This document shows, piece after piece, positions 3,507 to 37,462 of a stretch of 64,000 bases of DNA (position 1 is the stretch's first letter; the number at the start of each line of letters is the position of its first letter). The notes beneath the pieces are model-generated. The model searched no databases and was not told where the DNA came from. It saw only the letters and a program-made list of their open reading frames with translations. The stretch spans positions 186,001 through 250,000 of the forward strand of contig CAXHUL010000214.1 in NCBI GenBank assembly GCA_964019695.1. The letters run 5' to 3'. Both the position numbers and the translations under genes were made by a program. The DNA comes from Loripinus fragilis. Its lineage: Eukaryota > Mollusca > Bivalvia > Lucinida > Lucinidae.

Positions 3507-4146
3507 AACAGCCACCAGTTTTTTTTTGCCACACCAGAATTTGGCAAAATCACATCATCTTTCTAGTGGTGCAAAAGACTCAAAACCACTAAAATACAAA
3601 AATACAGACATAAGGGAGCAAAACATATATAATTATGACTAAAAAAATATATGCCATCATAATGAAAAAAATGGTCAAAGTCAAAAACCCCGCGGGGTTT
3701 TCCAAAAACCCCGCGGGGTTTTTAAAACCCCGCGGGGTTTTTAAAACCCTGCGCGGGGTTTTTCCCCCACATTTTCAAATGGGGGAAAAACCCCGCAGGG
3801 TTTTTTCAAAAAAATAAATATCAAAATAAGTTCAAGAAATAAGTTTGTTTGATTGTAATTATTTCAGAAAATGATTGGTAAGGCTTAATTCCAACCTTTA
3901 ATTTCCCCCGCGGGGTTTTTCTCCCATTTCAGATTGTGGGGGAAAAACCCCGCAGGGTTTTTTGAAAAGCTGATGAAAGGTTTGTTTTTAATTGTATTGC
4001 TTTACAAAACAATATAGAAGCTGAATTGAAGTTTTTCTCATCATTTGAAGCCTTTCAAGCAAAATAAAAAAAAACCCGCGGGGGAAAACCCCCGCGGGGT
4101 TTTTCCCCCACAAAATGAAATGGGAGAAAAACCCTGCGGGGTTTTC
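3507..4146 (+). repeat. Left terminal inverted repeat of the giant element
   Basis: It pairs with 36842-37462 in inverted orientation. The outer 185 bp differ from the right arm at only four positions by eye, including identical 9-base T/A runs near the tip. The next portion (about 3805-3900) is more diverged, roughly one mismatch in ten. The spacer at about 3966-4070 has no visible counterpart in the right arm, although the hairpin block that follows matches again. This pattern suggests selection on, or homogenisation of, the tips. Confidence 0.9.
3683..4146. repeat. CCCCGCGGGG palindrome and hairpin modules, left arm
   Basis: Three blocks: 3683-3805, 3903-3962 and 4070-4146. Each contains the self-complementary core CCCCGCGGGG, or variants CCCTGCGGGG and CCCCGCAGGG, usually bounded by A-runs and T-runs. 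Within a block, GGGGTTTTTCCCCC is followed after a short spacer by GGGGGAAAAACCCC, which makes a near-perfect stem of about 15 bp. The first block has at least four consecutive palindromes, one more than the right arm. Such iterated palindromes are plausible recombinase-binding or structure-forming sites; that role is inferred. Confidence 0.85.
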
Positions 4147-5103
4147 ACCAAAGAGTGATTATCAGTTTTATTAATGATTGAGATCAGTTATACATTTAGA
4201 GCTCATATTATTTAAGTTTTTACAGTAATTAAAGGCCATAAAACAATTCTCTCGATGACCCCTCCCCCCACCCCCCCCCCCCCCCCCAACCCTTGTCCGC
4301 AACCCCCCCCCCCTCGTCCGCCATGCACTGCATCAGCGGTGATCACTACCAAGTTTGCACCACCGAACGGCCCAAAAAATATTGTTCAGGTAGCACTGAT
4401 ATTATTTGTTTAGCACATTTCATTACATCCCAGTCAACCATTTATCAGTCATGTTAGGATGCGTCTTATGGGTTGAAACAGTTCTAACAGCAGATAAAAG
4501 CACTAATATTAATAACGGCCATTGCAGTACCTGTCATACATAACTGCAATCTTATAAACTGGTTAATATGTAGTACATTGACAGACAGTGCAGACCAGGA
4601 TCAGATGCAGCAGAATGTAGCATCTGATCACGGTCTTCATTGATTGTTTAGGAATCATAGAATGGGCTGGGCATCAAGAAATTTGGGTCTTTTCTACAAC
4701 CCTGTGTGTATCCTATAGAAAGATCCTGGTCTAAAGCAGACCAATTTCACAGATCTTAATTGATGTACCTATTCCGGCTACACAGTGTCTTTCATGCATC
4801 CAAGGGTCCATGACGGGGGTCGCGCCTATAGCAATGCACCAAACTCCTGGGGAGTGTACAGGAAGATAGAGTACGGATTGGGTAGTTAAAAAAAACTAAG
4901 ATGGCAGATTGATGACATGCTATTTTCTACTAGTTACAGAGGTATAGTGAGATTTACAAGAAAAGTATTACTGGAATGTGCTCACTTTGACAACTAGCTG
5001 ATGAAAGGTAAATTGATTTTGCCTTGTCAATTAGTTTTTAGCTACTTTCATTTTGCCTACAAGCTGACAAGTTCCCCACCCCCTGGCCCTGCCTCTGTAG
5101 ACA
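4147..5103. other. No gene; internal sequence with C-rich tract
   Basis: This follows the left arm directly and I see no recognisable coding or RNA gene. It includes a C-rich run (4259-4313). It also holds GATC-containing short inverted repeats around 4590-4630 of the type common in the rest of the insertion. Confidence 0.6.
4259..4313 (+). repeat. Poly(C)-rich low-complexity tract
   Basis: Runs of C up to about 17 long, interrupted by CCAACCCTTGTCCG-type spacers. The run length is likely to be polymorphic or poorly resolved in sequencing. Confidence 0.9.
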
Positions 5104-5111
5104 GAAAATAA

Positions 5112-5676
5112 TAGGGCTGCAACGATTCATTGAAATCGTATCGTATCGCGATACGTTTTCTGACGATACGCGTATCGTATCGTGAGGTCGTCTCACGATA
5201 CGCTAACGATACAGCACTTGGTGTTATATATTAGAAATGATTTTTAAAAATATATGTTTTTGTACAAAAGGAATGCCTCCATTTTCCCTTTTAATTGTTC
5301 TGCTTTTATCAGTTAACCCTATTCCATGCTAAACACTTGATATATCCTGTTTTGAAACAATGTAGAACAAGATCAGCTGGCTTTTGAGAATCCAGCTGAT
5401 CTTAATCTATACAGTTTTTGGCTCTGCTTATAAATACATGCTAATAATTGAAATATTTTAAAAGAATTTGATACAAACTGGGGAAGAGTGTAGTACATAA
5501 AAACATCCAACATGACAAAGGTTAATATTTGAGTATTTACTTCTCCTAATTTCATAGATCTATGTTGTTTCTAAGGTTCTAAAGTTGTCAAAAATGTATC
5601 GCGATACGTATCGTATCATGAGGCAAATATCGTGATACGTATCGTATCGTGAGGTAACTGTATTGTTGCAGCCCTA
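5112..5676. mobile_element. hAT-type miniature element 1
   Basis: It starts TAGGGCTGCAAC and ends GTTGCAGCCCTA. It is flanked by an exact 8-bp duplication GAAAATAA (5104-5111 and 5677-5684). Both ends carry tandem palindromic runs built from TATCGTATCGCGATACG. The terminal sequence and 8-bp duplication fit the hAT superfamily. There is no transposase frame, so it is non-autonomous. Confidence 0.88.
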
Positions 5677-5958
5677 GAAAATAACCAGTGATTAACTGTG
5701 ATTTGCAAATAAATTTGTGTTGAGTTGAGTGAAAGAGTTGACTACTTGCGAGACAATACAGTCAAAGGGCTGTTAATAACAATAACAGCTTACATAAACT
5801 TTTGCACTGTCACATTTTTAAACAACAATTTTTAAGCCGGTACAGACAAACCATTGGCAGAACAGATAGAACGCGCCGACTGGGGACCGAGCCTGTTGTG
5901 TTAAAGTCAATTGTGACAGTACAATGTATCGATGTAGATGTATATGTACAGTCGATAG

Positions 5959-6515
5959 TAGTGGTAGGCCGATTTATCGAGCTCATCGATCATTGGTCAT
6001 TTTCAGTGAACTGATTAATTGATCGGTAGTTTTTCAATAATCGATTACTCAGTATAGACCTTCTGCTTCATTGGCCTTCAATTTTTAGCTTGGTGTATTT
6101 ATTTAATATGACCCTTTTCTGCATTTTCAGTTTCTGGTATGAACAGCATATGGTTCAAATAATGTACATAGCTAGGTTTAGATAAACAAAAGTTTTGAGT
6201 GTAAAATTGTAAATATATACTAATCCATCAGTTTGAACATATGTTTTGGGTGCTCAAAAGAACCGTCTTATTGAGATGGTTCTTTTGAGTACCCACAACA
6301 TATGTTTTGGTTGAGAAAATTAATTTTTTGGTACACACTCTGAACACCTAACATGGCTGGTCAATCAACTTGACCCCGTAAGGCATCTTAGACATACCTG
6401 GCATGATATGTACCATATATAATATGTATTTTATTTTAGTCGATTAATGATTGATCATTGGTCACTTGTTATTTTCAATGATCGATTATAAAAATCCAGC
6501 CGATTCCTACCACTA
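5959..6515. mobile_element. hAT-type miniature element 2
   Basis: It starts TAGTGGTAGG and ends CCTACCACTA, with an exact 8-bp duplication GTCGATAG (5951-5958 and 6516-6523). Its subterminal parts are rich in ATCGATTA motifs in both orientations. It has no transposase. It encloses a long hairpin at 6238-6304. Confidence 0.88.
6238..6304. repeat. Long hairpin with 31-bp stem
   Basis: The arms 6238-6268 and 6274-6304 pair over 31 positions with three mismatches around a TATTG loop. The inner part (GCTCAAAAGAACCGTCT) recurs as a second hairpin at 20935-20979, so it belongs to a dispersed family. Confidence 0.85.
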
Positions 6516-6603
6516 GTCGATAGAACCTCACAACCAGAAGAAATGATGCTGCATTCTCGGGACCGCCGTGACGTCACAGCCTTAGCGGCACATAAACAAA
6601 TGT

Positions 6604-6927
6604 TGGTTGGTTGGTTTTGTTGCTTTACGTCCCAAGTCAACAGCTATGGTCATTGCGGGACGGTCAGTTCACCTAACCACACTTTTTCCTGGGCAGACTT
6701 GAACAAGCGGTTAACCAGTAATTTGTGCACATACTTTCGCTTGTAACTGACAACAACCCTTCTTGAATGAATCAGCGGAAGGGAGGAGAATGACCGTAGA
6801 AGTTATTTCATGATCAATCTCCACGAAAGTATGGAACCGGGCCGGGATCGAACTTGCGACCCCTGGATCTGCAGTCAGACACGCATCTGTAGCCAGACAC
6901 GTTACCGACTGCGCTACGCGGCCCGGT
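6604..6927 (-). mobile_element. tRNA-derived SINE, full length
   Basis: Minus-strand retroposon flanked by a 12-bp duplication ATAAACAAATGT (6592-6603 and 6928-6939). Its 5' head lies at the high-coordinate end and carries both tRNA promoter boxes. The 3' end finishes in AAAGCAACAAAACCAACC-type tail repeats. A second, 5'-shortened copy is at 34119-34418. The 3' portion resembles the tails at 20188-20262, 21222-21421 and 22676-22765, so several SINEs here probably shared one LINE partner. Open frames crossing it are translations of the SINE and not genes. Confidence 0.88.
6845..6916 (-). promoter_or_regulatory. RNA polymerase III A and B boxes of the SINE
   Basis: On the minus strand, TAGCGCAGTCGG (6905-6916) matches the A-box consensus and GTTCGATCC (6845-6853) matches the B box. 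Both look intact in this copy. The copy at 34119-34418 has lost part of the A box and has a mutated B box. Confidence 0.75.
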
Positions 6928-6939
6928 ATAAACAAATGT

Positions 6940-7433
6940 ACCGAGGTGAATTGGACAGTGAATTTTAACATTACGGGTAACAGGAAAATGATGAAAAACG
7001 TGCTGCATTCATTCAAATTCTCTGATTTTTTCACCAGTCTGCGCTTAATTCGAAGGAAAAACATTGTCTTTTGTCCCACCATGATTAATTTAATTATAAT
7101 TTCACCGATTATTCACAAATTATTGAAAAACTTGGATGTGGGTGGGGTGAACGGCTATCGGTTTGCGATCATTTAGATGCGATCTCTAATGTCTTAGGAG
7201 CTTTAACAACAGTAGAACACTCAATGCCTTTGGTACAATATGCAGCCTGTCATAAAAGCTATCCTTTTCAAGAAAAGTTCCCAGCTATTGTTATAAGGAA
7301 TTCGAGCATAATCTCAAGATTTGTATCAATAGGCCTACATGCGGGGATCCAGGAATTTTCGTCAGGTGGGGCGTCCAGGTTTATCTGTCATAAAAAGATA
7401 AAAAATCTTAGACAACGTTTTTCTTTGGGTTTT
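6940..7433. other. No feature recognised
   Basis: AT-rich sequence between the SINE and the next repeat element. No gene, RNA or clear repeat boundary was seen. Confidence 0.5.
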
Positions 7434-8424
7434 TTATGCCCCTGAAGGAACTTTGGGAGGCATATAGTAATTGCACAGTCCGTCCGTGTGTCCGTCCGTC
7501 CGTCCCGCTTCGTGTCCGGTGCATATCTCCTAGATTCTTTGAGGTAGGGATTCCAAATTTGGTATGTGGATACATCTTGGGATGGCGGAGTGTCGCATAC
7601 CATTTTCGAGTCACTGTGACCTTGACCTCTGACCTAGTTTTTAGAATAATCATGTCCGGAGCATATCCCTTACATTATTTGAGGCAGGAATCTCAAATTT
7701 GGTGTGAGGATGCATCTTGGGATGACAAAGTGTCCCGTACCATAATTGGGTCACTGTGACCTTGAACTTGACCTCTGACCTAGTTTCTAGAAACTGCAAT
7801 GAGTCTGGTGCATATCTCCTATATTCTTAGAGATAGGAATTCCAGATTTGGTGTGTAAATGTATCTTGGGATGACAGAGTGTCACATATCATTTTCGGGT
7901 CACTGTGACCTTGACCTCTGACCTAGTTTTAAGAATTATTGCGGCCAGAGCCTAAATCCTAGGATGTGGATGCATCTTGGGATGGTGGAGTATTGTTTAC
8001 CATTTTCGGGTTACTGTGACCTTGACCTAACCTAGTTTTTAGAATAATCGTGTCTGGAGCATATCTCTTATATTATTTGGGTAAGGAATCTCAAATTTGG
8101 TAAGTGGATGCATCTTGAGATGACGAAGTGCCGTGTACCATAATCGGGTCACTGTGACTTTGAACTTGACCTCTGACCTAGTTTTTAGAAACTGCATTGA
8201 GTCTGGTGCATATCTCCTATATTATTTGATGTAGGAATCCCAAATTTGGGGTGATGATTCCTCTTGGGATGGCAGAGTGGTGCATACCATTTTGGGTCAC
8301 TTTGACCTTGACATTGACTTCTGGCCTCATTTCTAGGTTTTTCCTGTTTGGAGCATATCTCCTATATTACAGCTTACTTTCCTCAAATGTGTCTTATGCT
8401 AGACCAATTCCTTTGGGGGCATTC
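7434..8424. mobile_element. Mollusc-type element with internal ~200-bp tandem repeats
   Basis: The left end reads ATGCCCCTGAAGG and the right end CCTTTGGGGGCAT, which are imperfect inverted copies. After a CCGTCCGTCC microsatellite (about 7478-7504) come about five degenerate repeats with recurring phrases: GCATATCTCCTA, CAAATTTGGT, CATCTTGGGATG and CACTGTGACCTTGACCT. I know this layout from many bivalve repeats, but I do not assign a superfamily and no duplication is evident. Confidence 0.6.
7610..8335. promoter_or_regulatory. Six clusters of AGGTCA-type nuclear-receptor half-sites
   Basis: GACCTTGACCTCTGACCT or variants occur near 7616, 7756, 7905, 8016, 8154 and 8299. Read on the minus strand this gives AGGTCA, one base, AGGTCA (a DR1 arrangement) overlapping TCAAGGTCA, the extended half-site used by ERR/SF-1-type receptors. 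The spacing follows the tandem repeat. The sequence match is direct; receptor binding is not shown. Confidence 0.35.
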
Positions 8425-8551
8425 GTCACGTGTTTGTGACATTTCTTGTTTAGTCCTCAACTTATTTTACAGAAGTCCAATGGTTTATTTTAAAGAAAAT
8501 TGTAATTTTCCAAGGATCCAGAGGGGGTCTATCATTTTTTCCAAGGGGAGG

Positions 8552-9712
8552 CAGGGGCGTAGCTTGGCTTCAATTAATGTGTAGGCCTAATGGTAGGGGG
8601 GTCTGGGGGCTTGCTCCCCCAGAAAAATTTTCGGTCCTAGACTGTCCAAATATGTATTTTGCGATTATTTTGCACTTATAAATGTGTTCATGCGATTGTT
8701 AGAAATTACAGGTAGTTATCACCATCATCGCCCATATGGCCTAATATGCTTATCAAGTTTGATCAACTTACGGTGCTGAAATGCAAAAACAAAATCATCG
8801 ACCTGGGAGTCAGGGAGAGGTATCATACTCTTTTAACCATTAAATGGCCAATCACTACAAAAGTAGTCCGCTTTCTCATCTGCTGAATTGTTTTACAAGC
8901 GCCTTTGACAAACAGTGAGAGATCCAGATCTGGGTCTACACTGTTTGCCTCAATACTGACATTAGTCAATAATATTAGCAAATATATGCAACAGAGGACT
9001 TAGGCAGACGCGTCTTTCATTTGAAGTTTTTGGCTGGTGCTTTAGGGTTAGAAGGCTTATAGGAGCCTACATGGTTATATAGCAAGAAGACATGTGACAT
9101 TGTAATGATCATCCCAAATAAAAGATACAATGTACTGTACATGTATGTTGAAAAACAAGCGACATCAAGTTTCAATATCTAAATGCAGGTAGCAACAAAA
9201 CTATTAATCACAAGCCAACTTAGAAAAAAAACTAATTTTCTGCATTAAATTTGTCTGACGCAAACATGTTTATCACCCTGTCAACATCAAGTGTCTGTAG
9301 ATCATCGCTACGAAGGACAGCCTGGTAGACATCATTGTTGAGCGCAAGTAGTTTTTAATTCTTTTCATGCTACCTTTGGCATGTTGCGGACGTCAGTGGC
9401 ATGGTCAAAAGGACTCCAATTATGGTGAAAATGCAATTATACAGGCTGCAAAGCTTCATGCGATGGTTCATTTCCTATTTGGTAGGCTAGCAACATCACG
9501 TGACAGCTCGTCCTGGAACGCAAACAACCGTTCTTCTATAGTGGGTAATGGGTGACGTCTGATATCAGGATAATTTGGAATATCTTTCTGATTTACTCAC
9601 CCCCTACCCCCTCCCCCCTCCATTTTATTGCATTTTTGGCGTTTATATTTTTTTTACTTTCTGAAAAAGTGTAGGCCGCGGCCTACATGGCCTAAAGGAA
9701 GCTACGCCACTG
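8552..9712 (-). mobile_element. Degenerate hAT transposon
   Basis: The ends CAGGGGCGTAGCTTGG and GGAAGCTACGCCACTG are inverted copies of a hAT-like terminus (CAGTGGCGTAGC type). The flanks share only GGAGG, so the expected 8-bp duplication is not clear. A hAT transposase C-terminal remnant lies inside on the minus strand. The low-complexity stretch at 9600-9622 is pyrimidine-rich. Confidence 0.7.
9232..9368 (-). pseudogene. hAT transposase C-terminal fragment, frameshifted
   Basis: Reading the minus strand from 9368, one frame gives MKRIKNYLRSTM followed by TRLS, the pattern of the conserved hAT dimerisation region. After a frameshift near 9300 a second frame gives LDVDRVINMFASDKF and stops at 9232-9234, the usual acidic hAT C-terminus. 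No catalytic DDE region or BED finger is recognisable upstream. The remnant lies within the matching inverted termini of 8552-9712. It could not supply transposase. Confidence 0.7.
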
Positions 9713-10045
9713 GGAGGGGTCCAACTTTTTACAGGGGGGGAGGAGGGGCAATCGCTTATTCCCTATACCCATATCAGCAGTGTTTCCCCGAGAGTGTGTT
9801 TCTTGCGTTTTTGACGATTTATATTTTGTCATTTATAAGTTTCTCTAAAGTAACCCTTCGCCCGGAATATAAATTCGACAAATTTGTTCGACAAATTTGC
9901 CTTGATTGACTTCTGTTTGGCCAGGCGACACATCAGATTCTCGGAATTCTAGTGTTTTTTTCCTTATCTTATTGTTTCAAGCTGTATATACCATACATGT
10001 ACAAATTAATTTGAATAAAATATAATATTTGATCCAATTGAAACC
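9713..10045. other. No feature recognised
   Basis: G-rich start (about 9735-9750), then AT-rich sequence. No gene or clear element boundary. Confidence 0.5.
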
Positions 10046-11036
10046 GCTGATGGGTGATTTAAAAAAAAATGCATCCGAAGTGTGACATTGGGGGTCAAAT
10101 TTCAAAATTGCTCCATCATTATCTTTTTTACATCCTCTTAACCAGGGAACATCAAAATTTCAGAAACAAATACTGGTTTAAGAATAAAATTTAGGACAAT
10201 GCTTTAAATTTAATACTTTAATCATTTTTCCTTATTTTTTTACAATTCTATAAGCTACACTTAGCTTGATTATAAACAACACAGGTATGCAGAATTGTAA
10301 ATATTCTTTCATGAACTGATGAAGTAGTTATGTATACACATTTTCAAAGTGAAATTTAATCTTTCGGTCAAAATTTGCACTTGTAATAAAATTTTATGTG
10401 AAAATACACCCCTGGATTTTCACTGTGTAGAGGAAAAAGTTTTTCTAATTTAAATAGTAAGCATGATTTTTGTTAAAAATTGTTCTTAGATAACAAGTAG
10501 GGTATATGAAAAACATAGAACAAATTTCATTTGAATATATAGGATATAAAACATATTAAACACAATAACATATGTTGGTAATGGAATGTGTTACACTTGT
10601 GACAAAATCAGAAGAGGGAGTTTCTCCTTTGAATTTTTTATCTCTTATAGATTTTTTATAGGATGAAGTGAATTGGCTTCATGGAAATTGATTAAAATGT
10701 ATCAAAACATAAATCAATTCCCTTTTTTTAGCACAAGACTTTAAAAAATGAACTATTCAGATTTGTTTATTAAGCATAGTAAGGAGTTATAAAATGTTAA
10801 TGATCAGAAAACAGTTGACAGCACTCATTGTGGGATAAATTATCAATTGAATGATTTGATTGATACCATTTTTGCAATTCTAAAGAATCTGTAACAAATT
10901 TAAGGCTTAAATAGAAAGAAATAATTGTGTTACACTTGTGACATTACAAAGGAACTGATTATGACCCTTTTGTCCTTTTTATCTCTTATACTTTATGTAA
11001 CCTACTATAGTATGTACAACTTAGCATCTTTTTTGG

Positions 11037-11572
11037 TTTATGATAAATGTGATGACTTTGATTTTGAAATTGTCAATTTCCCATTTTTAGATGGTGATGT
11101 TCCTCGTTCTACATCCTATGGAGTCTATATCTCTCAACTCATTCGTTTTGCTAGAGCATCTAGCTATGTTGCTGACTTCAACACTCGCAATAAATTGTTA
11201 ACTCAGAAACTTCTTAAACAAGGCTATCGGTATCATAAACTTCGCAAAACATTTTCAAAATTTTATAGACGATACTATGATTTGATTTCTAAATTCCAAG
11301 TTGGACTTAAATCTCTCTTGCGCTAAGGACTTTCGGAACCTGATTTCTATGGTGACTTGGTGTATAAGTTGAAGAAGATTGTTGGCTCTAATAATTTTTC
11401 AGCGCAGTTCATTAAAATAATTTCCCATTATAAAAAGATTGGCTATAACATTAATGTATTGCAACAGACTGCATGCTTGGTAGTCAACCCAATCACGGTT
11501 GGCAACTTTGCTTTCCTCTTTAATTGCACGCCGGTGGGTCGGACTTCAGACTCTATGAAGGTTCCGACTTAA
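11037..11572 (+). pseudogene. Retrotransposon reverse transcriptase C-terminal remnant
   Basis: The translation contains FPFLDGDVPRSTSYGVYISQ, then RQGYRYHKLRK-like and FYGDLVYK segments. I recognise this as the region downstream of the RT domain in an abundant family of invertebrate retroelement proteins; I do not assign its clade. An in-frame TAA at 11324-11326 stands where relatives have Gln, and the same frame then continues to 11572 (ending near FLFNCTPVGRTSD). The RT catalytic domain is absent, so the copy is 5'-truncated and dead. It sits inside the inverted-repeat element at 10046-13631, followed by its own 3' untranslated region. Confidence 0.75.
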
Positions 11573-12110
11573 AGACTTATCTATTGATGAGATGGTAGGG
11601 GCCTGATGCTTTGGCTGTTTGTCGGGCCCACCGGGGTTTACCTGTTGGATTTCTTTTGCTCCGGTATTCAGTTTAATTTACTGTTGAGTCCTTATCCTTG
11701 CTTTATCTCCTTGTTATATCTTGATTTATATGTTTTAGGAGATGATGCATTGATAAGTTAGGGGTCTTTCATGCAAACCAAATATCTATGTGTCTTGATC
11801 CACATCTGAACTAAGGGTTAGGTTGGCGCCGTTAAACCGGTTTAAGCCCTCCAGTAAAATATTTTACTGACCGTTCCAAGGCGGTACTTCTTTTGTGGAT
11901 CTTTTATGTTTTTGTTCTGTCTTGTGTCTGCTATGTTTTGTGCACGTCTGTTTATATGTGCTTTGTGGTCACCTGCTGGGAAAGGGCTGACCTTTTGGCT
12001 CTCGTTTGTGGTGTCTTCTGTGAGTTTGTCACTTTCCCATTGGTATCCTGGGTCAGGTGTGGTACTTGATTGTATCGATTCCTGATCTTTGCACCATTAC
12101 TTACTTTTCT
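11573..12110 (+). mobile_element. Retrotransposon 3' untranslated region and tail
   Basis: It follows the RT remnant. It includes GGCGCCGTTAAACCGGTTT and a long T-rich segment, and ends in TTACTTACTT, the tetranucleotide tail typical of this kind of element. An AATAAA just past the tail (about 12114) belongs to the flank or is read-through. The final part, from about 11890, is repeated at 12966-13182. Confidence 0.7.
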
Positions 12111-14176: not shown

Positions 14177-14389
14177 GTAAGATTTTGACCTTAGTATGAA
14201 CAGTAAATTTTTTTGCGCTGATGAGATTACTGCAATACATTGAGAGACTGACCCAGAATCTAGGTAGCTGTACAATTATCTAAATAAGTAAAACAGATGT
14301 GTTTAACACAAATCCCCCACCCACATTGTTCCAGAGCACTGCAAGTCACCAATTGTTATGTACTAAGTACTACTAGTCAATTGTATAGG

Positions 14390-16190: not shown

Positions 16191-16237
16191 CATGGGGGGA
16201 TGTGTAGATGACACATGTGAAGAAAAAGCATATGACC

Positions 16238-26588: not shown

Positions 26589-29500
26589 GATCAGTTGTTT
26601 CCAAAAACGGGATATATCTAGGTTCAGCAGGACAAAGATTGATTTGATATTTAAGCAAGTGCATTTATTATAACATAGTAACCCTATTTGTCTCGACAAG
26701 CATCCATTTCTATTTTACTCTGCTTGTTGGAAATTATTTAGGTATTTTGTCATCTGCTGTCTTTTCTAAATTAATTTACTATATAGTTCCTTCATTATCA
26801 CTATCAGAGAGTCAAACAGTTTGGATTCAGATCAGGTCTGACATTTTGTCGGTGCTGATCTGGTTCTAAAACTGTTTGCAAAGGTTATCAGCAGACAACA
26901 ATTGTAGGCAAAGAGAAACTTCAGCAGTGTATATCTATAAACTTGCAGGGTTCCACTTAGTAGTATGCATTTATAACCAAAGTAGAAAACAATATGTATC
27001 CTGATCAGCTGGTTTCAGGCCAGCTGATTCAGATCTATACTGTTTTCAAAACAAGTTATACCCAGGTACAGCATGGTATGGGCCATTTTACATTATTTAC
27101 AGGTCATCATATTTCTTTAATTTTTATTTTTGTTAATTTTCTCCTTATGCACATAAAATTCGACAAAAACACAGAAGAAATTTAGGATACTGCCTGATTA
27201 TGACTATTTCCTATGAGTGTAGATCCAGATCAGCTAGCTTATGAGAGGCCAGCTGATCAGGATCCACACTGTAAGGTGCAAGAATTGTCATAGGTAAAAT
27301 AATAAATCGATAGAAGAGAAATGAACAAAATATTCACTAAAAATATATATACAAACTACAAACATGTACTTAAAATGAATAGTTTAGCATTTTAAAAGGA
27401 TTTTTGCTTGGGAGTATATATTGTGGGAGTATCATTTTGGGAGCAGACATAGACGGCACCTTCAGGTGTGTAAAAACAAAAACCTTACACCCTAGTGCAC
27501 ATTATGTTTACTAAGTTTAGACATAGAGTGCATTAATAGTGAACATCATGCAATTCACATAACAACTTAAGTTATAATTCATTACTCGAATATTAAGCGA
27601 ATAAAGAAATGTGCTTCATGCAAGATTGTCATTTTGTATCCTGCTTGATAACTTATATCACTTTAACTATCCTTGTTAGCAAAGACTTTTGTCATCTGCT
27701 GATAACCTTTGCAAACAGTAAGGACCCAGATCTGGAACGAGAAGAATGTCGATCCTGATCTTGATCCAAAAGGATTGACACTCTAATAGTGCGTTCCTGA
27801 ACGAATTTATTGAAAAAGTAATTTAAAAAAAAAAAAGTCAGCAGACGACAAAAAAGTTTATAGATAAAGATCTTTCTGGTTCTATTGTATTGTTATAATT
27901 CATAACTCGAAAATATTAAGCGAATAAAGAAATGTGCTTCATGCTAGATTGTCATTTTGTATACTGCTTGATAACTTATGTTATTTTGAATTATATCATT
28001 TTAACTATCCTTGTTAACTAGGTTGCAAGGCAGTAGACATTAGAATAAAAACCCGTATTATTAGCTTTTGGATGAATATTGTGAATGGTAAACAAACAAA
28101 TCTATCAAAATGGTTATACTTACTTCTACTAGGAGAATATGATGGTGGCATCCATCAACATAAATGGATCCATTTTATTAAACATATTCTAATATCTGTA
28201 GGGCGTCCCGATCTTTTAAACAAGGAAGTCATTGAAAACCCAAAATCAATCAAAAATCAAATCTCTAAAACTCTATCAGACCTTTATGTTCAGGAGTGGC
28301 ATAACAAAGTAACTTCATCCTCTAAAGGAAAGAATTATACTCTTTTCAAGCAAGATTTAAATTTTGAAAATTACCTAATCAAATTAAATAGGAAACACTG
28401 TTCTTCATTGTTAAAGTTTAGGTAAAGTAATCATCGGCTTCCGGTTGAAACTGGTCGCTGGGAAAACACACCTTTAGAAGACAGAAAATGCACATTATGT
28501 AGCAAACATGATATCGGTGACAAATTTCACTATCTTTTTGTTGTTGATCACTTTATATCTGACAGAAAGAAATATTTAAGATCATATTTTTACAAAAGTC
28601 CTAACATTATAAAATTCAAAGAACTATTTTCTTCAGCAAATACCAGGAAGCTTGTAAAGTTATCAAGTTTTGTAGAAATTATAATGAATAAATGTTCATG
28701 TGCAGCCTAACCCTAATATAGTCAATCATTACGATAATATACTTCTTACTATGTCTTGGCTTAATATTTCATGGGAATAACCTGATTATAGACAACTCAC
28801 ATGATATGTCAAATCATGAGAATTGTCTATAATCAATAATGTGGAGCCTTATTTTGTTTCCTAATGAAGCAACAACAGTCGATTATGTTGCCTACTGTAA
28901 GTCATAGAAGGCTCTTTCAGGGTTGATTTTGCTTGCATTTTAACTTTCACCTTTTTCATGCTCTTTGTACTCATGTATTTTATGTATATCATGTATATGC
29001 TTTGTTTTTTTGTATCTTATGCCTTTACGCTATCTATGAGTGGTCTGAGTTTTATGTCAATAAAATATGTTCTGTTCTGTTAACAAAGACTTTTGTCATC
29101 TGCTGATAACCTTAGCAAACAGTAAGGACCCAGATCAGGGCCGAGAAGAATGTTGATCATTATCTTGATCCAAACCGACTGACACTCTAATAGTGTGTTT
29201 TTGAAAGAATTTATTGAAAAAAGTTATTTTAAAAAAAAAGTCAGCAGACAACAAAAAGTTTATAGAAAAAAGATCTTTCTGGTTCTATTGTATTGTATTT
29301 GAATTTAAGGTACAACTTGCATTTTATATTGTAGAACAGTGACCTATGTCACTGTACAGAAATGTGTAGAAAGACCCTTGTTACTGTGTATAACATTTTA
29401 TCAGACAGACAATGTCGTCTGCTGATAACCTTGCAAACAGTTAGGACCAAGATCAGAACCAATTGAAAGTCATTCCTGGTCTGCATCCAAAATGTTTGAC

Positions 29501-30127
29501 ATTCTAATTGAGTTCCTGAAAGAATTTTTGCAAAAGACATAAAAAGAATTCAACTAGTTAAAAAAGATCTTTTTGGTTTTAATGGTCAGCAGACCTCAAA
29601 ACATTAATGTGGGCATGACTGGATTTGTTCATCTAAATTGAAGTGTTCTTGTTACCCTGGCAACAAATAGCAGGCTTCTGACCACATGGTGAGGCTATTA
29701 CCTGGTGTCTTAATCCCAATAAACACAGAATTTTCAGTTTTACACTGTCAATCACATACCAGCTTTAGCAAACAGTGTAGATACAGATGAGAAGCAGCTA
29801 ATAAGGAAAGAGTTAAATCATTAAGGTCCTTTAAGATAGTCTTCTGGAATAACCTTTTAGTGAATAAATTATTTTCTTCAAAGAACAAAACAAATAGTCC
29901 CTGATCAGACTGCATTGATTTTTTTATATAAATCTTTACATGCAACATACTTAGTGATTTTGTTGTCGTCTGCTGACTCCTTTCAAAATAAATATTTTCA
30001 AGAAATTTCAGGAAAAAAAATCAAGGTGTCAAATTGTATGGATCCAGATCAGGACCAAACATACTGTTGGTCCTGATCTGACTCCAAACTGTTCATGAAT
30101 GTTATCAGCAGATGACAAAAGTTTGAT
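26589..30127 (+). repeat. 3.54-kb tandem segment, copy B
   Basis: Collinear with copy A over its whole length (3539 against 3538 bp). It differs by scattered substitutions and small A-run changes. Contents are the same MITEs and LINE fragment. Confidence 0.9.
28019..29077 (+). pseudogene. LINE C-terminal fragment, copy B (nonsense)
   Basis: Same insertion as in A and C, with TGTTAAC at 28012-28018 and 29078-29084. The frame starting at 28072 is open to a TAA at 28423-28425, a single T-to-A change against copy C, then continues in the same frame. One change further on replaces the last Cys of the zinc knuckle (VCDH to VVDH), which would disable it. The lesions differ from those of copy A, so each arose after the triplication or in separate lineages of copies. 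Confidence 0.85.
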
Positions 30128-30203
30128 GATCAGTTGTTTCCAAAAACGGGATATATCTAGGTTCAGCAGGACAAAGGTTAATTTGATATTTGAGCCAGTG
30201 CAT

Positions 30204-30428
30204 GAGATTTCCAACAATGTGGTATGTGCGACCAGCAAAGCCTCAGATCAGCCTGCGCATACGGGCAGTCTGATCAGAACCTTTGCTAGTCGCTTGAGTA
30301 TTCTATGATTGTTAAGCTACTGACTGAACACCATTTGGAGTTTCTAAGCTTAACAGGAGGCTGCAGAGGCTCTTCCGAGTCTACACTTGTCAAAATGCCA
30401 CATCGTTTGAACTCTCATGCCGCGGCTC
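30204..30428. mobile_element. Hairpin MITE inserted only in copy C
   Basis: The empty site is visible in copies A and B (TATTTATGCAAGTGCATTT). Here the insertion is flanked by imperfect copies of about 14 bp (TTTGAGCCAGTGCAT and TTATGCAAGTGCAT). The termini GAGATTTCCAACAATGTGG and CCACATCGTTTGAACTCTC are imperfect inverses. The centre is a strong hairpin (30228-30293) starting GCGACCAGCAAAG and ending CTTTGCTAGTCGC, a motif I associate with widespread bivalve repeats. Confidence 0.8.
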
Positions 30429-31807
30429 ATTTATGCAAGTGCATTTATTATATAACATAGTAACCCTATTTGTCTCGACAAGCATCCATTTCTATTTTAC
30501 TCTGCTTGTTGGAAATTATTTAGGTATTTTGTCATCTGCTGTATTTTCTAAATTAATTTACTATATAGTTCCTTCATTATCACTATCAGAGAGTCAAACA
30601 GTTTGGATTCAGATCAGGTCTGACATTTTGTCGGTGCTGATCTGGTTCTAAAACTGTTTGCAAAGGTTATCAGCAGACAACAATTGTAGGCAAAGAGAAA
30701 CTTCAGCAGTGTATATCTAACCAACTTGCAGGGTTCCACTTAGTAGTATGCATTTATAACCAAAGTAGAAAACAATATGTATCCTGATCAGCTGGTTTCA
30801 GGCCAGCTGATTCAGATCTATACTGTTTTCAAAACAAGTTATACCCAGGTACAACATGGTATGGGCCATTTTACATTATTTACAGGTCATCATATTTCTT
30901 TAATTTTTATTTTTGTTAATTTTCTCCGAATTTTATGCACATAAAATTCGACAAAAACACAGAAGAAATTTAGGATGCTGCCTGATTATGACTATTTCCT
31001 ATGGGTGTAGATCCAGATCAGCTAGCTTCTGAGAGGCCAGCTGATCAGGATCCACACTGTAAGGTGCAAGAATTGTCATAGGTAAAATAATAAATCGATA
31101 GAAGAGAAATGAACAAAATATTCACTAAAAATATATATACAAACTACAAACATGTACTTAAAATGAATAGTTTAGCATTTTAAAAGGATTTTTGCTTGGG
31201 AGTAGATATTGTGGGAGTATCATTTTGGGAGCAGACATAGACGGCACCTTCAGGTGTGTAAAAACAAAAACCTTACATCCTAGTGCACATTATGTTTACT
31301 AAGTTTAGACATAGAGTGCATTAATAGTGAACATCATGCAATTCACATAACAACTTAAGTTATAATTCATTACTCGAATATTAAGCGAGTAAAGAAATGT
31401 GCTTCATGCAAGATTGTCATTTTGTATCCTGCTTGATAACTTATATCACTTTAACTATCCTTGTTAGCAAAGACTTTTGTCATCTGCTGATAACCTTTGC
31501 AAACAGTATGGACCCAGATCTGGAACGAGAAGAATGTCGATCCTGATCTTGATCCAAAAGGATTGACACTCTAATAGTGCGTTCCTGAAAGAATTTATTG
31601 AAAAAGTAATTCAAAAAAAAAAAGTCAGCAGACGACAAAAAAGTTTATAGATAAAGATCTTTCTGGTTCTATTGTATTGTTATAATTCATAACTCGAAAA
31701 TATTAAGCGAATAAAGAAATGTGCTTCATGCTAGATTGTCATTTTGTATCCTGCTTGATAACTTATGTTATTTTGAATTATATCATTTTAACTATCCTTG
31801 TTAACTA

Positions 31808-32497
31808 GGTTGCAAGGCAGTAGACATTAGAATAAAAACCCGTATTATTAGCTTTTGGATGAATATTGTGAATGGTAAACAAACAAAACTATCAAAATGG
31901 TTATACTTACTTCTACTAGGAGAATATGATGGTGGCATCCATCAACATAAATGGATCCATTTTATTAAACATATTCTAATATCTGTTGGGCGTCCCGATC
32001 TTTTAAACAAGGAAGTCATTGAAAACCCAAAATCAATCAAAAATCAAATCTCTAAAACTCTATCAGACCTTTATGTTCAGGAGTGGCATAACAAAGTAAC
32101 TTCATCCTCTAAAGGAAAGAATTATACTCTTTTCAAGCAAGATTTAAATTTTGAAAATTACCTAATCAAATTAAATAGGAAACACTGTTCTTCATTGTTA
32201 AAGTTTAGGTTAAGTAATCATCGGCTTCCGGTTGAAACTGGTCGCTGGGAAAACACACCTTTAGAAGACAGAAAATGCACATTATGTAGCAAATATGATA
32301 TCGGTGACAAATTTCACTATCTTTTTGTTTGTGATCACTTTATATCTGACAGAAAGAAATATTTAAGATCATATTTTTACAAAAGTCCTAACATTATAAA
32401 ATTCAAAGAACTATTTTCTTCAGCAAATACCAGGAAGCTTGTAAAGTTATCAAGTTTTGTAGAAATTATAATGAATAAATTTTCATGTGCAGCCTAA
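31808..32497 (+). CDS. LINE polyprotein C-terminal fragment, open
   Basis: Open from the truncation point at 31808 to TAA at 32495-32497; the first Met is at 31859 (212 residues). It encodes the region behind the reverse transcriptase of a non-LTR element: a helical, Lys-rich stretch, then LPVETGRWENTP and a zinc knuckle CX2CX9HX4C at residues 140, 143, 153 and 158 counted from that Met (CTLC...HYLFVC), a known C-terminal feature of many LINE proteins. The RT and endonuclease domains are absent, so it cannot retrotranspose. The open frame is probably just the least damaged of three copies. Nothing in the sequence indicates a promoter or host use. LINE clade not assigned. Confidence 0.7.
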   Translation, partial: GCKAVDIRIKTRIISFWMNIVNGKQTKLSKWLYLLLLGEYDGGIHQHKWIHFIKHILISVGRPDLLNKEVIENPKSIKNQISKTLSDLYVQEWHNKVTSSSKGKNYTLFKQDLNFENYLIKLNRKHCSSLLKFRLSNHRLPVETGRWENTPLEDRKCTLCSKYDIGDKFHYLFVCDHFISDRKKYLRSYFYKSPNIIKFKELFSSANTRKLVKLSSFVEIIMNKFSCAA

Positions 32498-32570
32498 CCC
32501 TAAAAGAGTCAATCAGTACGATAATATACTTCTTACTATGTCTTGGCTTAATATTTCATGCGAATAACCT

Positions 32571-32621
32571 GATTATAGACAGTTCACATGATATGTCAAA
32601 TCATGCGAATTGTCTATAATC
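32571..32621. repeat. Stem-loop in the LINE 3' UTR
   Basis: GATTATAGACA pairs with TGTCTATAATC, with further pairing inside (TCACATGAT/ATCATGCGA). The same structure stands at 25252-25302 and 28784-28833. Structured 3' UTRs are used by some LINEs for template recognition; here that is inference. Confidence 0.7.
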
Positions 32622-32938
32622 AATAATGTGAAGCCTTATTTTGTTTCTTAATGAAGCAACAACAGTCGATTATGTTGCCTACTGTAAGTTATAGAAGGCT
32701 CTTTCAGGGTTGATTTTGCTCGCATTTTAATTTTCACCTTTTTCATGCTCTTTGTACTCATGTATTTTATGTATATCATGTATATGCTTTGTTTTTGTAT
32801 CTTATGCCTTTACGCTATCTATGAGTGGCCTGAGTTTTATGTCAATAAAGATATGTTCTGTTCTGTTAACAAAAGCTTTTGTCATCTGTTGATAATCTTT
32901 GCAAACAGTAAGGACCCAGATCAGGGCTGAGAAGAATG

Positions 32939-33358
32939 TTATAATCCCAAATAATTGGTATGTTCTAGAATGTTCTAGAAAGTCTCAGTCCAGTTCCAAT
33001 TCTGCTTGAATAGAACTTCCTGGGATTTTGTGGTACTTCACTTTACATGGTATTTAATGAAATTACATTAAATCCCAAAAGTTGGAACAATTGGTATTTT
33101 CTGTCACTATCTGGAACTGGAAAATCCCAGAAAGTCTCAAATAATTCTGCTTAAAATATAAGTGGGATTTTATGTTACTTTCTGGGATAAATATTCCATT
33201 TAATCCCAGAAAGTCCCAGTAGGTACTTTAAATGGGATTATTAAGATTTTCTGGGTCTTCATCAATTCAACACATCCATATAATTTGGGATTAAATGGAA
33301 TCTTTTGGTACTGCTAGTAAATAATTTGGTTCCATTTAATATCAAATAATCCCAACCT
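32939..33358. repeat. Repeat rich in AATCCCA/TGGGATT motifs
   Basis: It starts ATAATCCCAAATAATTGG and ends ATCAAATAATCCCAACC. AATCCCA occurs at about 32942, 33072, 33124, 33213 and 33346, and TGGGATT or GGGATT at about 33012, 33165, 33235 and 33288. Phrases such as AATCCCAGAAAGTC recur. It looks like a degraded fold-back element that truncated segment C. No gene. Confidence 0.5.
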
Positions 33359-33989
33359 AGATTTGCATAGGACCATTATATTCTGAACTCAGTCTGACCT
33401 TGAAATATGATATAACTGTGTTAACCTGGTTCTCTCATTTCAATGACCAAAGCTGAAATTCTTTAATCTTGCAGGAAACCAGAAAAAGATTCAAATAAAC
33501 CTCATGGTTTGCAAGGCTCTAACTATTTGATAAATCCTGTGTTAATTTTGGATATATACTGCATAAACTGCACAAAATAAATCCTACAACAGACAGTGTG
33601 AGTTAATAGAACATATTTCTATGCTTATAAATTATACTTGCATGAGACTTTTCATCATATAATTTAGTTTCTCAGAAACAAAGCCATTTGTAGTTGTTTC
33701 TTTCCTTAAATGCTGATGAAAGACGCTTAATACTGAATTGTGTTCATTATGGTTATACAATTTTACCATTATCATTATTATTTACAGCAGCATTTATGGC
33801 AGTACAACACTTAGTTAGTGTGGTACATGTAAGCAGGTTAATTACTGAATTTACAGGATAATCAGGCTGATCATTGGGGCTTATTTTTATTTGATTTTTT
33901 TTATCCATTCTCTTTTTAAAAGGTGTTGGAGATATTGCGATTGCCTTCGTCTGTATATCAGGTTTTTGTTTGTTACGCTATCTTCTAAA
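33359..33989. other. No feature recognised
   Basis: AT-rich, unremarkable sequence. No coding or RNA gene seen. Confidence 0.5.
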
Positions 33990-34745
33990 CAACTGGACAG
34001 ATTATCAAACCAAATTTGTTGAGCAACTGGTGTATGCAACTGGTGTATGCAACAGCAAAATTCCAATACCCCAATGATGTGGGATGTATGCCTGCAATAC
34101 TTTCACCTTGCAAACGGTTTGTTTGTTTTGTTGCTTTACGTCCCAATTCAACAGCTTAGGTCATGGCAGGACAGTTAGTTCACCTAACCACACTTTTTCC
34201 TGGGCAAGCTTTAACAAGCAGTTAACCAGTACTTCGTGCACATACTTTCACTTGTAACTGACAACAACCCTTCTTGAATGATTCAGCGGAAGGGAGGAGA
34301 ATGACCGTAGAAATTATTTCATGATCAATCTCCACGAAAGTACGGGACCGGGTTGGGATTCAATCTTGCGACCCCTGGATTCAGACTCACATCTGTTGCC
34401 AGACACGTTACCGACTGCGCAAACGGTCATACTGAATCCAACCGAATTTGTTTGGTGACTTACTTGCACAAGTGGGTGAGCAGGAGCATTACTGTTTTTT
34501 GCTTTTTGGATCCCCTTTGCATGGGCCTCAGAGAGTGTGCATTTTCTGGCTAAATTGCAGTCTCTTTCTGAATTGCTGGGTAGAACTCAACCAAATTTGT
34601 GCACAACTTAAACAAATTGTGTATACAAGAGCTTATTTTTGGGTACCCCACTCAGAGGCGCCCTATAATGGGGTCAAAAGTGTCTGCCCATTCTTCTTTT
34701 ATGCTAATCCAAACATGCTGGGCTGAATTCAACCTAATTTGTTGA
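33990..34745 (+). repeat. Degenerate ~140-bp tandem repeat split by a SINE
   Basis: Phrases of the type CTGGGTAGAACTCAACCAAATTTG occur at about 34002, 34433, 34579 and 34719. The first is separated from the others by the SINE at 34119-34418. Such phrases are frequent in bivalve repeats. Frames across the region are not conserved. Confidence 0.55.
34119..34418 (-). mobile_element. tRNA-derived SINE, 5'-truncated copy
   Basis: Same family as 6604-6927 and flanked by a 9-bp duplication GCAAACGGT (34110-34118 and 34419-34427). Compared with the first copy it lacks about 13 bases at the 5' end, including part of the A box. Its B box is mutated (GATTGAATCC), so it should be transcriptionally inactive. 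Confidence 0.85.
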
Positions 34746-35283
34746 AAGGTCGACTTTCTCACAAGTGGGGAGTGGTAAAGAACATTTATTTTTTTAACCT
34801 TCCAGCCAAATTTTCGATTATCCGAAACTACTGGGTTATTCGAAGACTACGGACAGTCCTGACTTTTTTCTCTATTATCTATTGCAATAAAACTACCTAT
34901 TATTCGAATTTCGATTATCTGAAAAATTCAATTTTTTGAAGTGATTTGTCGGTCCCGAGAAAAGAAATGGCTATTAAATTACCTTTCAAGATTCGAAGTC
35001 CAAATGTCACGCATGGTGATCATGATTTCTTTGTTGGGTCGAGTTTATTTTTATTATATAGATTAATAATAAGAAAAAAATAGGTGAATGCCATTACAAT
35101 AATACTTCATCAGTGTTGACGTGGTCTATTGTCATATACAGCATGGATGTTGGTGACCTGATTTTGAATGAAACGATTCAAATCTGAATATAGATATATA
35201 AACAAACAGGTTTTAAAATATTAAAACCAAACCAATAATGTATATGATGTATATATGTTCAATGTTTCTATCTTGATTTTGTA
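34746..35283. other. No gene; AT-rich with TTCGATTATC motifs
   Basis: The phrases TTCGATTATCCGAA (about 34818) and TTCGATTATCTGAA (about 34909) and several ATTCGAA motifs suggest a worn element around 34800-34945. The rest is featureless. Confidence 0.35.
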
Positions 35284-35346
35284 ATTGTGCTTTATTTGTA
35301 TGCTCTTCACATGTGGAGGAAATAAAGAATATTATTATTATCATTA

Positions 35347-35396
<50 letters not shown>

Positions 35397-35410
35397 ATTA
35401 TTATTATTTT
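35284..35410 (+). repeat. Retroposon 3' end with (ATT)n microsatellite
   Basis: GGAGGAAATAAAG followed by ATTATTATT repeats to about 35410. A polyadenylation-like signal directly in front of a trinucleotide tail is typical of a retroposon end. The upstream extent is not definable. Confidence 0.7.
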
Positions 35411-36841
35411 ATTAAGGTCGTCTGCAATGATGGTTTGGTTTGATGTTTTTTAAATGTCTAATTATGGGCAATAAATGAGCTAAACTTGATTTTAATTGGA
35501 TCTTCTCATCCTTTGATTTATTCTTGACCACTGTTTACATTATATTTAATATAGAATACAATTATGTCTACAGAATTCCAAAGGGCCCTTACTTAGACTA
35601 CAGTTATAATTCTGTCTGATTACTCTACTGGTTGTGATGAGATGAGACGAGCAATTATTTTGCCACACAAGCAGATATAATGATAGATATTGTATACGAC
35701 TTGGATAAGGATTAGTTAAGATATTTTAAAACATTTAACCAATTTAACAAATACTAAATTGTCATGTTAAAATAGAAACTATTATTTTCCACGCCCCTCT
35801 ATCTATATCGTAGTATTATACATATATGGAAATATTGAAAAAGTTTATATATAACATCTGTAAAAAAGGTCTTGATAATAGAGCAATGAATTGCTTCCTA
35901 AGATTAAAGCACCAAAGTTCAGAGATTTATAAGAAACCATGCGAAAAATATTCATTTCCTTTTGAAATATCATCTCTTACACCAAGTCGATGGCCTTGCT
36001 AATTTATTATGTTAGGTAACATAAGTTACAACCTGTAACACAACCTGTAACAAGTACTCCTATCTTGTTGTTTAACATGCAAAATCTATGATTCTTTATT
36101 ATATGAGCAAGACTATCAAAATATGGAAGATTTTATATAATTTTTACGTAAATAATACCTACCAAATTGGGCTCCTTAAAACTTGGGGTAGTGTTGTTTA
36201 ATTGCTTATATAAGGCAATGCATTTAAGATAGATAAACACACTTTTTTTTTCTATAAGCCAAATAAGTATGTTAGTACAACTAGATTAAAAGCATTTTAA
36301 AAATTCACAAATCAGCTGTAAAATTAAATGCTATTGGTCACAGTTACCGTTTTTGAAGGGTAGTTTTATGTAAGTAACGCACATAACACATTAGGATGCC
36401 GTAATTTTGCTTTAAAACTTTTATCTGCAGCTTAGGTATCCAGCAGGCAGACTATATGCGTGATTTAAATAGTTAGTTTAATGCCTTCTTTCTGTAGCAC
36501 AGCCTTTTAACTTTTCATTTTCTGAATTTTATATGGTAACATATGTAACAGACTGTCAGAGGCAAACACCAAATCGTACACATGCAAACATCTCTTATTC
36601 TACGCAGCTTGAAATGCTGTTTTAAGATACGATGTGTCTGCAAAATTCTTTAGCGGGGAGCAAAACATTCTCAGCCATCAGTCTAACAATGATACATTGC
36701 CATTTTGGTAACGTATATTTTAGGATTTCCCACCAAGGGAGAAATTGAAATCTCTCTGTTTTGATATAAAACTCTCACAACTTTGAACACAGAGTGTAAA
36801 ATGCTTCTTTGAGCTAAAAACTAAAAATATTATTTTTGGAT
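35411..36841. other. No gene; AT-rich inner flank of the right arm
   Basis: No open frame, RNA gene or clear repeat. Short inverted phrases GTAACATA and TGTAACA occur near 36012-36055 and 36535-36550. No similarity to the sequence inside the left arm was seen. Confidence 0.5.
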
Positions 36842-37286
36842 AAAAAACCCCGCAGGGTTTTTCTCCCATTTTATTTTGTGGGGGAAAAACCCCGCGGGGG
36901 AAAAACCCTGCGGGGGAATTTTCTTTTTCCTCTAGAGGCACAATATAATGCTGAAAGTTTTTTATATACCTTTTATTATGCATTGTGATGAATAATAATT
37001 CAAAAAAGTCAATTTGAATTTTTCAAAAAACCCTGCGGGGTTTTTCCCCCACAATCTGAAATGGGAGAAAAACCCCGCGGGGGAAATCAAAGTTTTGAAT
37101 TAAGCCATATCAATCATTTTCTGCAATAATTACAATCAAACAAACTTGTTTCTTGAACAAATTTTAATATTTATTTTTTTGAAAAAACCCTGCGGGGTTT
37201 TTCCCCCATTTGAAAATGTGGGGGAAAAACCCCGCGCGGGGTTTAAAAAAACCCGCGGGGTTTTCAAAAAACCCCGCGGGGTTTTT
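36842..37286. repeat. CCCCGCGGGG palindrome and hairpin modules, right arm
   Basis: Blocks at 36842-36919, 37026-37085 and 37181-37286 mirror the three left blocks in order and spacing. Stems again pair TTTTTCCCCC with GGGGGAAAAA. Short open frames that translate these repeats (NPAGF, PRGVF-like) are artefacts of the palindromes. Confidence 0.85.
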
Positions 37287-37462
37287 AACTTTGACCATTT
37301 TTTTCATTATGAAGGCATATATTTTTTTAGTCATAATCATATATGTTTTGCTCCCTTATGTCTGTATTTATGTATTTTAGTGGTTTTGAGTCTTTTGCAC
37401 CACTAGAAAGATGATGTGATTTTGCCAAATTCTGGTGTGGCAAAAAAAAACTGGTGGCTGTT
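36842..37462 (-). repeat. Right terminal inverted repeat of the giant element
   Basis: Inverted partner of 3507-4146. It is about 20 bp shorter, mainly because it has one fewer CCCCGCGGGG palindrome in the outermost block. It ends CTGGTGGCTGTT at 37462, directly against TAAT and the resumed satellite. The differences from the left arm in the outer 185 bp are at about 37282, 37314, 37338 and 37371. Confidence 0.9.

What the first reader, a model, noticed from the sequence alone, without database searches (positions are those of the whole stretch)
3507..37462. A 34-kb TIR-bounded giant element inserted cleanly into a satellite array
Seen directly: inverted termini AACAGCCACCAG/CTGGTGGCTGTT, arms of about 640 and 620 bp, an exact TAAT duplication, and the satellite resuming in register. 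DNA transposons of this size in animals are unusual outside gene-rich Polintons or virus-transposon fusions, and this one shows no such genes. The terminal sequence, the 4-bp TAAT duplication and the arm structure together match no family I can name. I consider it the best candidate here for an undescribed element family.
Basis: partly seen in the sequence, partly recalled or inferred. Interest (0 to 1): 0.9.

Follow-up and report, generated by a model that had tools for sequence, protein, structure and literature searches.

The report
Giant 34-kb passenger transposon with hairpin arms
A 34-kb block of DNA bounded by two matching inverted arms of about 640 bases sits in a satellite array with its 4-base target duplicated, and the same arm tip abuts 50 different flanking sequences in public data, so it is likely a giant passenger transposon, predicted to be moved by an enzyme made elsewhere and to carry about 33 kb of ordinary host DNA.

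Summary
Tips at 3507 and 37462 are perfect inverted 12-mers; the arms pair over 3507-4145 / 36844-37462 (86%; 1 mismatch in the first 120 bp); TAAT is duplicated; the flanks joined without one TAAT restore the 818-bp satellite in register. Two protein-level censuses show the arms to be a dispersed repeat family: an ORF inside the arm matches 98 other clusters (96 at E 0.001 or less); an ORF crossing the tip matches 51, of which 50 have different flanks ending at the tip. The base beside the tip varies, so TAAT is not a fixed target. Two clusters look like short foldback relatives. No transposase, viral or other gene was recognised in 300 interior ORFs; the longest is a LINE tail whose best cluster lists 851 members. 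Best reading: a giant non-autonomous foldback-type TIR transposon, moved in trans, carrying host DNA. Superfamily unassigned. The genome itself could not be searched, so the size of other copies is unknown. The papers searched hold foldback elements and maize macrotransposons as nearest kinds, but no description of this family was seen.

The parts
3507..4145 (+). Left arm (terminal inverted repeat, about 640 bp) with palindromic CCCCGCGGGG hairpin modules
36844..37462 (-). Right arm (inverted copy, about 620 bp)
3507..3518 (+). Left tip AACAGCCACCAG
   Evidence: same tip next to 50 other flanks
37451..37462 (-). Right tip, inverted
3503..3506 (+). Left copy of the 4-bp target duplication TAAT
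37463..37466 (+). Right copy of TAAT
4146..36843 (.). Interior, 32.7 kb, GC about 0.32-0.41, no recognised gene in the 300 ORFs scanned; read as captured or accumulated host DNA (inferred)
23050..32940 (+). Tandem unit of 3.5-3.8 kb spacing, two whole copies and a third of about 2.5 kb, 96-98% alike, each with a LINE 3'-tail coding region
   Evidence: relatives of the third copy's ORF
31805..32494 (+). Longest ORF of the interior (230 aa), C-terminal part of a non-LTR reverse transcriptase protein
   Evidence: (119 relatives; P0005 and P0017 carry PF00078)
1..3506 (+). Left satellite flank, 818-bp unit
37463..64000 (+). Right satellite flank, 818-bp unit

Best explanation
The 34-kb block ends in inverted arms of a multi-copy repeat family and duplicated 4 bp of the satellite it sits in, so it is likely a giant non-autonomous transposon that was cut and pasted as one unit by a transposase predicted to be encoded elsewhere. 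Shown: two arms, exact tips, 4-bp duplication, intact empty site in the other satellite units, and the same tip next to 50 other flanks. Inferred: a DDE-type transposase acting in trans binds the tip and the palindromic CCCCGCGGGG modules, pairs the two ends 34 kb apart, excises the block and joins it to a target cut with a 4-bp stagger. Inferred: the interior is host DNA, enclosed either because the ends of two neighbouring copies were used as one transposon (a macrotransposon) or because an internal region grew by nested insertions and local duplications before the last jump.
For: Tips, arms, duplication and in-register empty site. An arm ORF matches 98 clusters other than the window's own at E 10 or less, 96 of them at 0.001 or less. 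A tip-crossing ORF matches 51 clusters (50 at 0.001 or less); in 50 a flank ends at the tip, all 50 flanks differ in their last six residues, and 1 of 1225 flank pairs reaches the similarity cut-off, which the 4 flanks under 10 residues could not reach. Left-type (13 clusters) and right-type (21) tip signatures both recur (12 mixed, 4 unclassified); in the arm census 33 are left-type and 42 right-type of 99 (1 both, 23 neither). All 8 CCCCGCGGGG sites of the window lie in the arms; four left-arm stretches that I chose fold better than shuffles (z -3.8 to -9.1). No transposase recognised in 300 ORFs. The interior carries dispersed repeats, e.g. a LINE tail whose best cluster lists 851 member sequences. 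A 26-kb array of 99.4% identical units was assembled, which suggests long reads that would span the arms (inference).
Against: Only this one copy could be seen as DNA, so the 34-kb span, the duplication length and the interior cannot be compared with other copies. Two clusters suggest short foldback relatives, so a short element that later acquired a 33-kb insert is possible. 12 of the 50 tip clusters mix left and right signatures. No autonomous partner or transposase was found. A multi-exon gene with very short or novel exons could hide in the interior.
Confidence: 0.62

Rival explanations
1. A short foldback element (arm plus arm, about 1.3 kb or less) first inserted in the satellite, and the 32.7 kb were added to its middle afterwards by nested insertions, tandem duplication or a segmental duplication; the whole never jumped as one unit.
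For: Short relatives with directly joined arms appear to exist (2 of 99 clusters). The interior contains local tandem duplications.
Against: The interior was not resolved into a set of nested elements that would account for 33 kb, while the outer arms and the duplication look fresh; growth on this scale between fresh ends is less simple than capture before the jump (inference).
Confidence: 0.18
2. The element is autonomous or semi-autonomous: the interior holds its own fast-evolving, intron-split transposase that Pfam does not recognise.
For: Animal DNA transposons can have introns (recalled). Short stretches that look like exons exist near 14000 and 19790 (read by eye; no Pfam match, no PDB match).
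Against: 300 of the 312 ORFs of 40 aa or more gave only chance-level Pfam matches, best E 0.0062. The recognisable interior sequence is LINE tail and tandem repeats.
Confidence: 0.1
3. Assembly artefact: short arms of different copies were joined through their repeats, bringing unrelated host DNA between the two ends of a short element in the satellite.
For: The arms are a repeat family, so mis-joins inside them are possible in principle.
Against: It needs two independent false joins that return to the same satellite position with one exact 4-bp duplication. The assembly resolves a 26-kb array of near-identical units, which suggests long reads (inference).
Confidence: 0.07
4. Integrated virus or virus-like element (Polinton, herpesvirus fusion, adintovirus) with decayed genes.
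For: The size fits; the review on giant eukaryotic transposons heads its large DNA transposons Helitrons, Polintons/Mavericks and Teratorn (PMC6431247, outline).
Against: No viral, polymerase, integrase or capsid domain above chance in 300 ORFs (a Vp20_capsid match at E 0.045 is chance level); the longest interior ORF is a LINE tail; no relative of the arms in IMG/VR by one exact 25-mer and one protein probe; the single 19-mer match is chance.
Confidence: 0.03

Closest known systems
Foldback-type elements such as Tetris of Drosophila virilis (PMC4079207, passages seen)
   Same: Long inverted arms with internal repeats, variable middle domain without coding capacity, a short relative that shares the arm ends (DAIBAM), no known autonomous copy.
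   Different: Tetris has 8-10 bp duplications; here the duplication is 4 bp, the arm modules are CCCCGCGGGG hairpins, and the middle is 32.7 kb.
Ac macrotransposons of maize (PMC9910405, passages seen)
   Same: Two transposon ends far apart act as one transposon and carry the host DNA between them (10.3 kb reinserted and 28 kb excised there), with target duplications.
   Different: Plant Ac elements with 8-bp duplication and ends from known nearby elements; here a different end sequence and duplication, a single arm at each end, and an unknown donor.
KolobokP composite-like transposons, especially rich in bivalves (PMC9587614, passages seen)
   Same: Long repeats at both ends, 4-bp duplication, RR...YY type termini (AA...TT here).
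   Different: KolobokP ends are direct repeats with their own short inverted tips, target TTAA, and the internal region encodes a transposase and a His-Me nuclease; here arms are inverted, the duplication is TAAT, and neither gene was found.
Polintons/Mavericks and Teratorn (PMC6431247, abstract, outline and part 1 of section 6; PMC10175614, two passages)
   Same: Animal DNA transposons of tens of kilobases or more (Teratorn 180 kb).
   Different: Those carry viral or virus-like genes (Polintons recalled; Teratorn from the abstract passage); no such gene was found here.

Membership tests
TIR (cut-and-paste) DNA transposon, non-autonomous | Terminal inverted repeats with exact tips | tested here: met
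TIR (cut-and-paste) DNA transposon, non-autonomous | Short target-site duplication at a formerly empty site | tested here: met
   TAAT; empty site in 36 satellite units, 35 exact
TIR (cut-and-paste) DNA transposon, non-autonomous | Further copies with the same tips at other sites | tested here: met
   50 of 51 clusters with different flanks ending at the tip; protein-level evidence only, one end per copy
TIR (cut-and-paste) DNA transposon, non-autonomous | Mobilised by the transposase of a relative | not testable with these tools
   no autonomous relative seen; the own-genome search did not complete
Foldback element (structural group) | Long inverted arms with internal repeated modules | tested here: met
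Foldback element (structural group) | Middle domain variable between copies | not testable with these tools
   only one copy available as DNA; short relatives suggested by P0203 and P0218
Kolobok, piggyBac, Sola3 (TTAA superfamilies; Kolobok and piggyBac from PMC9587614, Sola3 recalled) | TTAA target duplication | tested here: not met
   duplication is TAAT; codons next to other tips vary
KolobokP | Long terminal DIRECT repeats | tested here: not met
   arms are inverted
Polinton/Maverick | Protein-primed polymerase, integrase and capsid genes (recalled) | tested here: not met
   none recognised among the 300 ORFs scanned of 312 of 40 aa or more
Macrotransposon (two nearby copies acting as one) | Host DNA between the two ends | tested here: inconclusive
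   interior recognisable only in part, as repeats common elsewhere; donor locus not seen
Macrotransposon (two nearby copies acting as one) | A complete or fractured element at each end | tested here: inconclusive
   one arm at each end and no second good tip; a fractured element would look like this
Sola1, Sola2, Academ, Chapaev (recalled as giving 3-4 bp duplications) | Family-specific terminal sequence | not tested
   no consensus library on hand; duplication lengths recalled

The most novel reading that the evidence does not exclude
An undescribed animal transposon family whose ends, built of palindromic CCCCGCGGGG hairpin modules, can synapse over more than 30 kb and so lift whole blocks of host genome from one place to another, including into satellite arrays: a natural large-cargo transposition system in animals that needs no viral genes.
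Probability: 0.3. Interest if true: 0.8.

Novelty: new variant of a known kind. Interest (0 to 1): 0.55.

Why it matters
A review states that the efficiency of DNA transposition drops with increasing distance between the inverted repeats (PMC6431247, part 1 of section 6), and heads its large DNA transposons Helitrons, Polintons/Mavericks and Teratorn (outline). A 34-kb passenger element with fresh ends and no recognised genes of its own would suggest that ordinary inverted-repeat ends can move tens of kilobases of host DNA in animals. It would give a way to duplicate or relocate genes and to seed other DNA inside satellite arrays, and the arm family would be a starting point for finding an enzyme with unusually long reach.

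Tried and rejected
Second tips inside the arms (two complete short elements at the two ends): no match with 0 or 1 mismatch other than the two tips. TTAA superfamilies: duplication is TAAT. TAAT as fixed target: rejected, since the base next to the tip is T in 22, A in 11, G in 6 and C in 1 of the 40 clusters read in that frame, and none of the 7 clusters in the second frame has the Asn codon that TAAT would give. Viral origin: no domain above chance; no IMG/VR relative of the arms or of the LINE tail; the one IMG/VR match to a 19-base arm module (L001) shares only 20 bp and is chance. Prokaryote contigs, exact 22-mer: none. Phage records, left arm: none. Rfam, tRNA: none. The weak Pfam matches (RAG1 0.043, Vp20_capsid 0.045, DUF2614 0.0074, PRP9_N 0.0062 and others; 10 and 5 families at 0.05 or less in two sets of 150) are about what 300 searches give by chance. 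Two exon-like peptides near 14000 and 19790: no PDB match. A first sorting of the arm census into left and right types used a string that belongs to the other arm; I dropped it and recounted. The tip 12-mer in papers: 71 papers, 20 listed and seen by title and start of abstract only; none of these 20 is on transposons by its title. Paper searches, seen as listings, showed no description of this family; only open-licence papers are held.
Full report
Observation. The two 12-bp tips occur exactly once each, at 3507-3518 and 37451-37462. The arms align over 3507-4145 and 36844-37462 at 85.8%. There is one mismatch in the first 120 bp, about 95% identity over the outer 236 bp, a divergent stretch of roughly 110 bp, and again a conserved hairpin module near the inner end. 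The satellite unit is 818 bp. The target site is present in 36 units (35 exact), and the two flanks together make two units to within 1 bp once one TAAT is removed. The extra DNA is element plus 4 bp; by sequence alone the 4 bp could be drawn at five neighbouring positions. Chance and a simple mis-join are poor explanations of tips, arms, duplication and register together.

The arms are a repeat family. No animal genome could be searched at DNA level: the own-genome search was busy nine times. I therefore used ORFs that happen to run through the arms as probes in the protein collection. An arm ORF (3614-3814) matched 99 clusters at E 10 or less, one of them the window itself (P0133); all but P0217 (0.0016) and P0218 (0.16) are at 0.001 or less. 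An ORF that enters the element from outside (3490-3639) matched 51 clusters, all but one (P0269, 0.0011) at 0.001 or less. In 50 of 51 a different sequence precedes the tip: 40 in the reading frame of the query, 7 and 3 in the two other frames; P0264 does not fit. All 50 flanks differ in their last six residues; 1 of 1225 flank pairs passed the similarity cut-off, which the 4 flanks under 10 residues could not reach. Two flanks (P0235, P0236) look somewhat alike by eye. So the tip is a true end next to many different flanks. Copies without an open frame across the tip are missed, so the counts are lower bounds.

Target. In the 40 clusters of the first frame the last flank base can be read from the codon: T 22, A 11, G 6, C 1. 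The target is therefore not a fixed TAAT, and the bases outside AACAG do not belong to the element, which supports the 4-bp reading. The 4-bp length itself rests on the window copy alone.

Two arm types. The window's arms differ at coding positions: KYKNT and NYD on the left, KYINT and DYD on the right. Among the 50 tip clusters 13 are left-type, 21 right-type, 12 mixed and 4 unclassified. In the arm census, 33 of 99 carry left-arm strings, 42 right-arm strings, 1 both and 23 neither (an earlier sorting was faulty and is dropped). Recurring left and right types fit an element with two distinct ends; the mixed ones blur this. Four contigs, judged by equal length only, hold two of 21 clusters that I picked by eye from the 150; distances are unknown.

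Short relatives. P0203 and P0218 read inward along the arm and then directly outward along it, as a short foldback would. This is 2 of 99 clusters, both diverged from the window's arms, the second a weak hit. They suggest that the ends need not enclose 33 kb.

Arm modules. All 8 CCCCGCGGGG palindromes of the window lie in the arms. Four left-arm stretches that I chose, folded as single-stranded DNA, give z-scores of -9.1, -7.6, -5.1 and -3.8. The number of modules seems to vary between clusters (by eye). That they bind a transposase is inferred, by analogy with the Galileo arms discussed in PMC4079207 (passages).

Interior. Of 312 stop-to-stop ORFs of 40 aa or more within 4000-37000, the 300 longest were scanned against Pfam (593 have 30 aa or more). 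Families matched at E 0.05 or less number 10 in the first 150 and 5 in the second, best 0.0062, about what chance gives; earlier small sets gave nothing better than 0.016. The longest ORF, 31805-32494, has 119 relatives at E 0.001 or less, two with a precomputed reverse-transcriptase domain (P0005, P0017), and its best cluster lists 851 member sequences. It lies in a tandem unit of 3.5-3.8 kb spacing, two whole copies and a third of about 2.5 kb, 96-98% alike. A 310-bp repeat at 6605 and 34116 (89%) and other tandem arrays were also found. I read the interior as host DNA; most of its length remains unassigned. That the genome is a bivalve's is recalled from the style of its repeats, not tested.

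Mechanism. Shown: ends, duplication, empty site, family. Inferred: a DDE transposase in trans, pairing of ends 34 kb apart, cut and paste. How the interior came between the ends is open: use of the ends of two neighbouring copies (compare Ac macrotransposons, 10.3 kb reinserted and 28 kb excised, PMC9910405, passages), or growth of an internal region before the last jump, both fit. Later growth inside a short element already in the satellite is the main rival.

Place among the known. The structure is that of foldback elements. TTAA families and KolobokP fail on target or arm orientation; Polintons fail on genes as far as scanned. Superfamilies recalled as giving 3-4 bp duplications (Sola1, Sola2, Academ, Chapaev) were not tested. 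Novelty is therefore put at new variant of a known kind, with the open possibility of a new family.

Noticed in passing
23050-32940: Tandem unit of 3.5-3.8 kb spacing (two whole copies and a 2.5-kb third, 96-98% alike) with a LINE 3'-tail coding region; the third copy keeps a 230-aa ORF.
   Followed up: partly
1-3506 and 37463-64000: Highly homogeneous 818-bp satellite (34 units compared, mean pairwise identity 99.4%), GC 0.51 against 0.32-0.41 for the element's interior; one unit of 808 bp near 50000.
   Followed up: partly
6605-6914 and 34116-34420: Two direct copies (89%) of a 310-bp repeat that looks like a tRNA-derived SINE (by eye; no tRNA called by ARAGORN).
   Followed up: no
10925-11323: ORF that I recall as a fragment of a widespread invertebrate reverse-transcriptase protein; no Pfam match beyond a chance-level one (0.016) and no PDB match better than E 0.12.
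   Followed up: partly
about 5110-5680: Possible hAT-like short element with ends AGGGCTGCAAC / GTTGCAGCCCT (by eye).
   Followed up: no
10590, 10929, 12332, 12679, 12843: GTTACACTTGTGAC occurs five times on the + strand within 2.3 kb and nowhere else in the window on either strand.
   Followed up: no
about 13995-14172 and 19790-19915 (+): Stretches that look like exons behind acceptor-like sites, each ending at a stop (by eye); no Pfam match and no PDB match.
   Followed up: partly
18160-19221: Tandem array of a 383-bp unit, 2.8 copies, whose parts recur in the 23-33 kb units.
   Followed up: no
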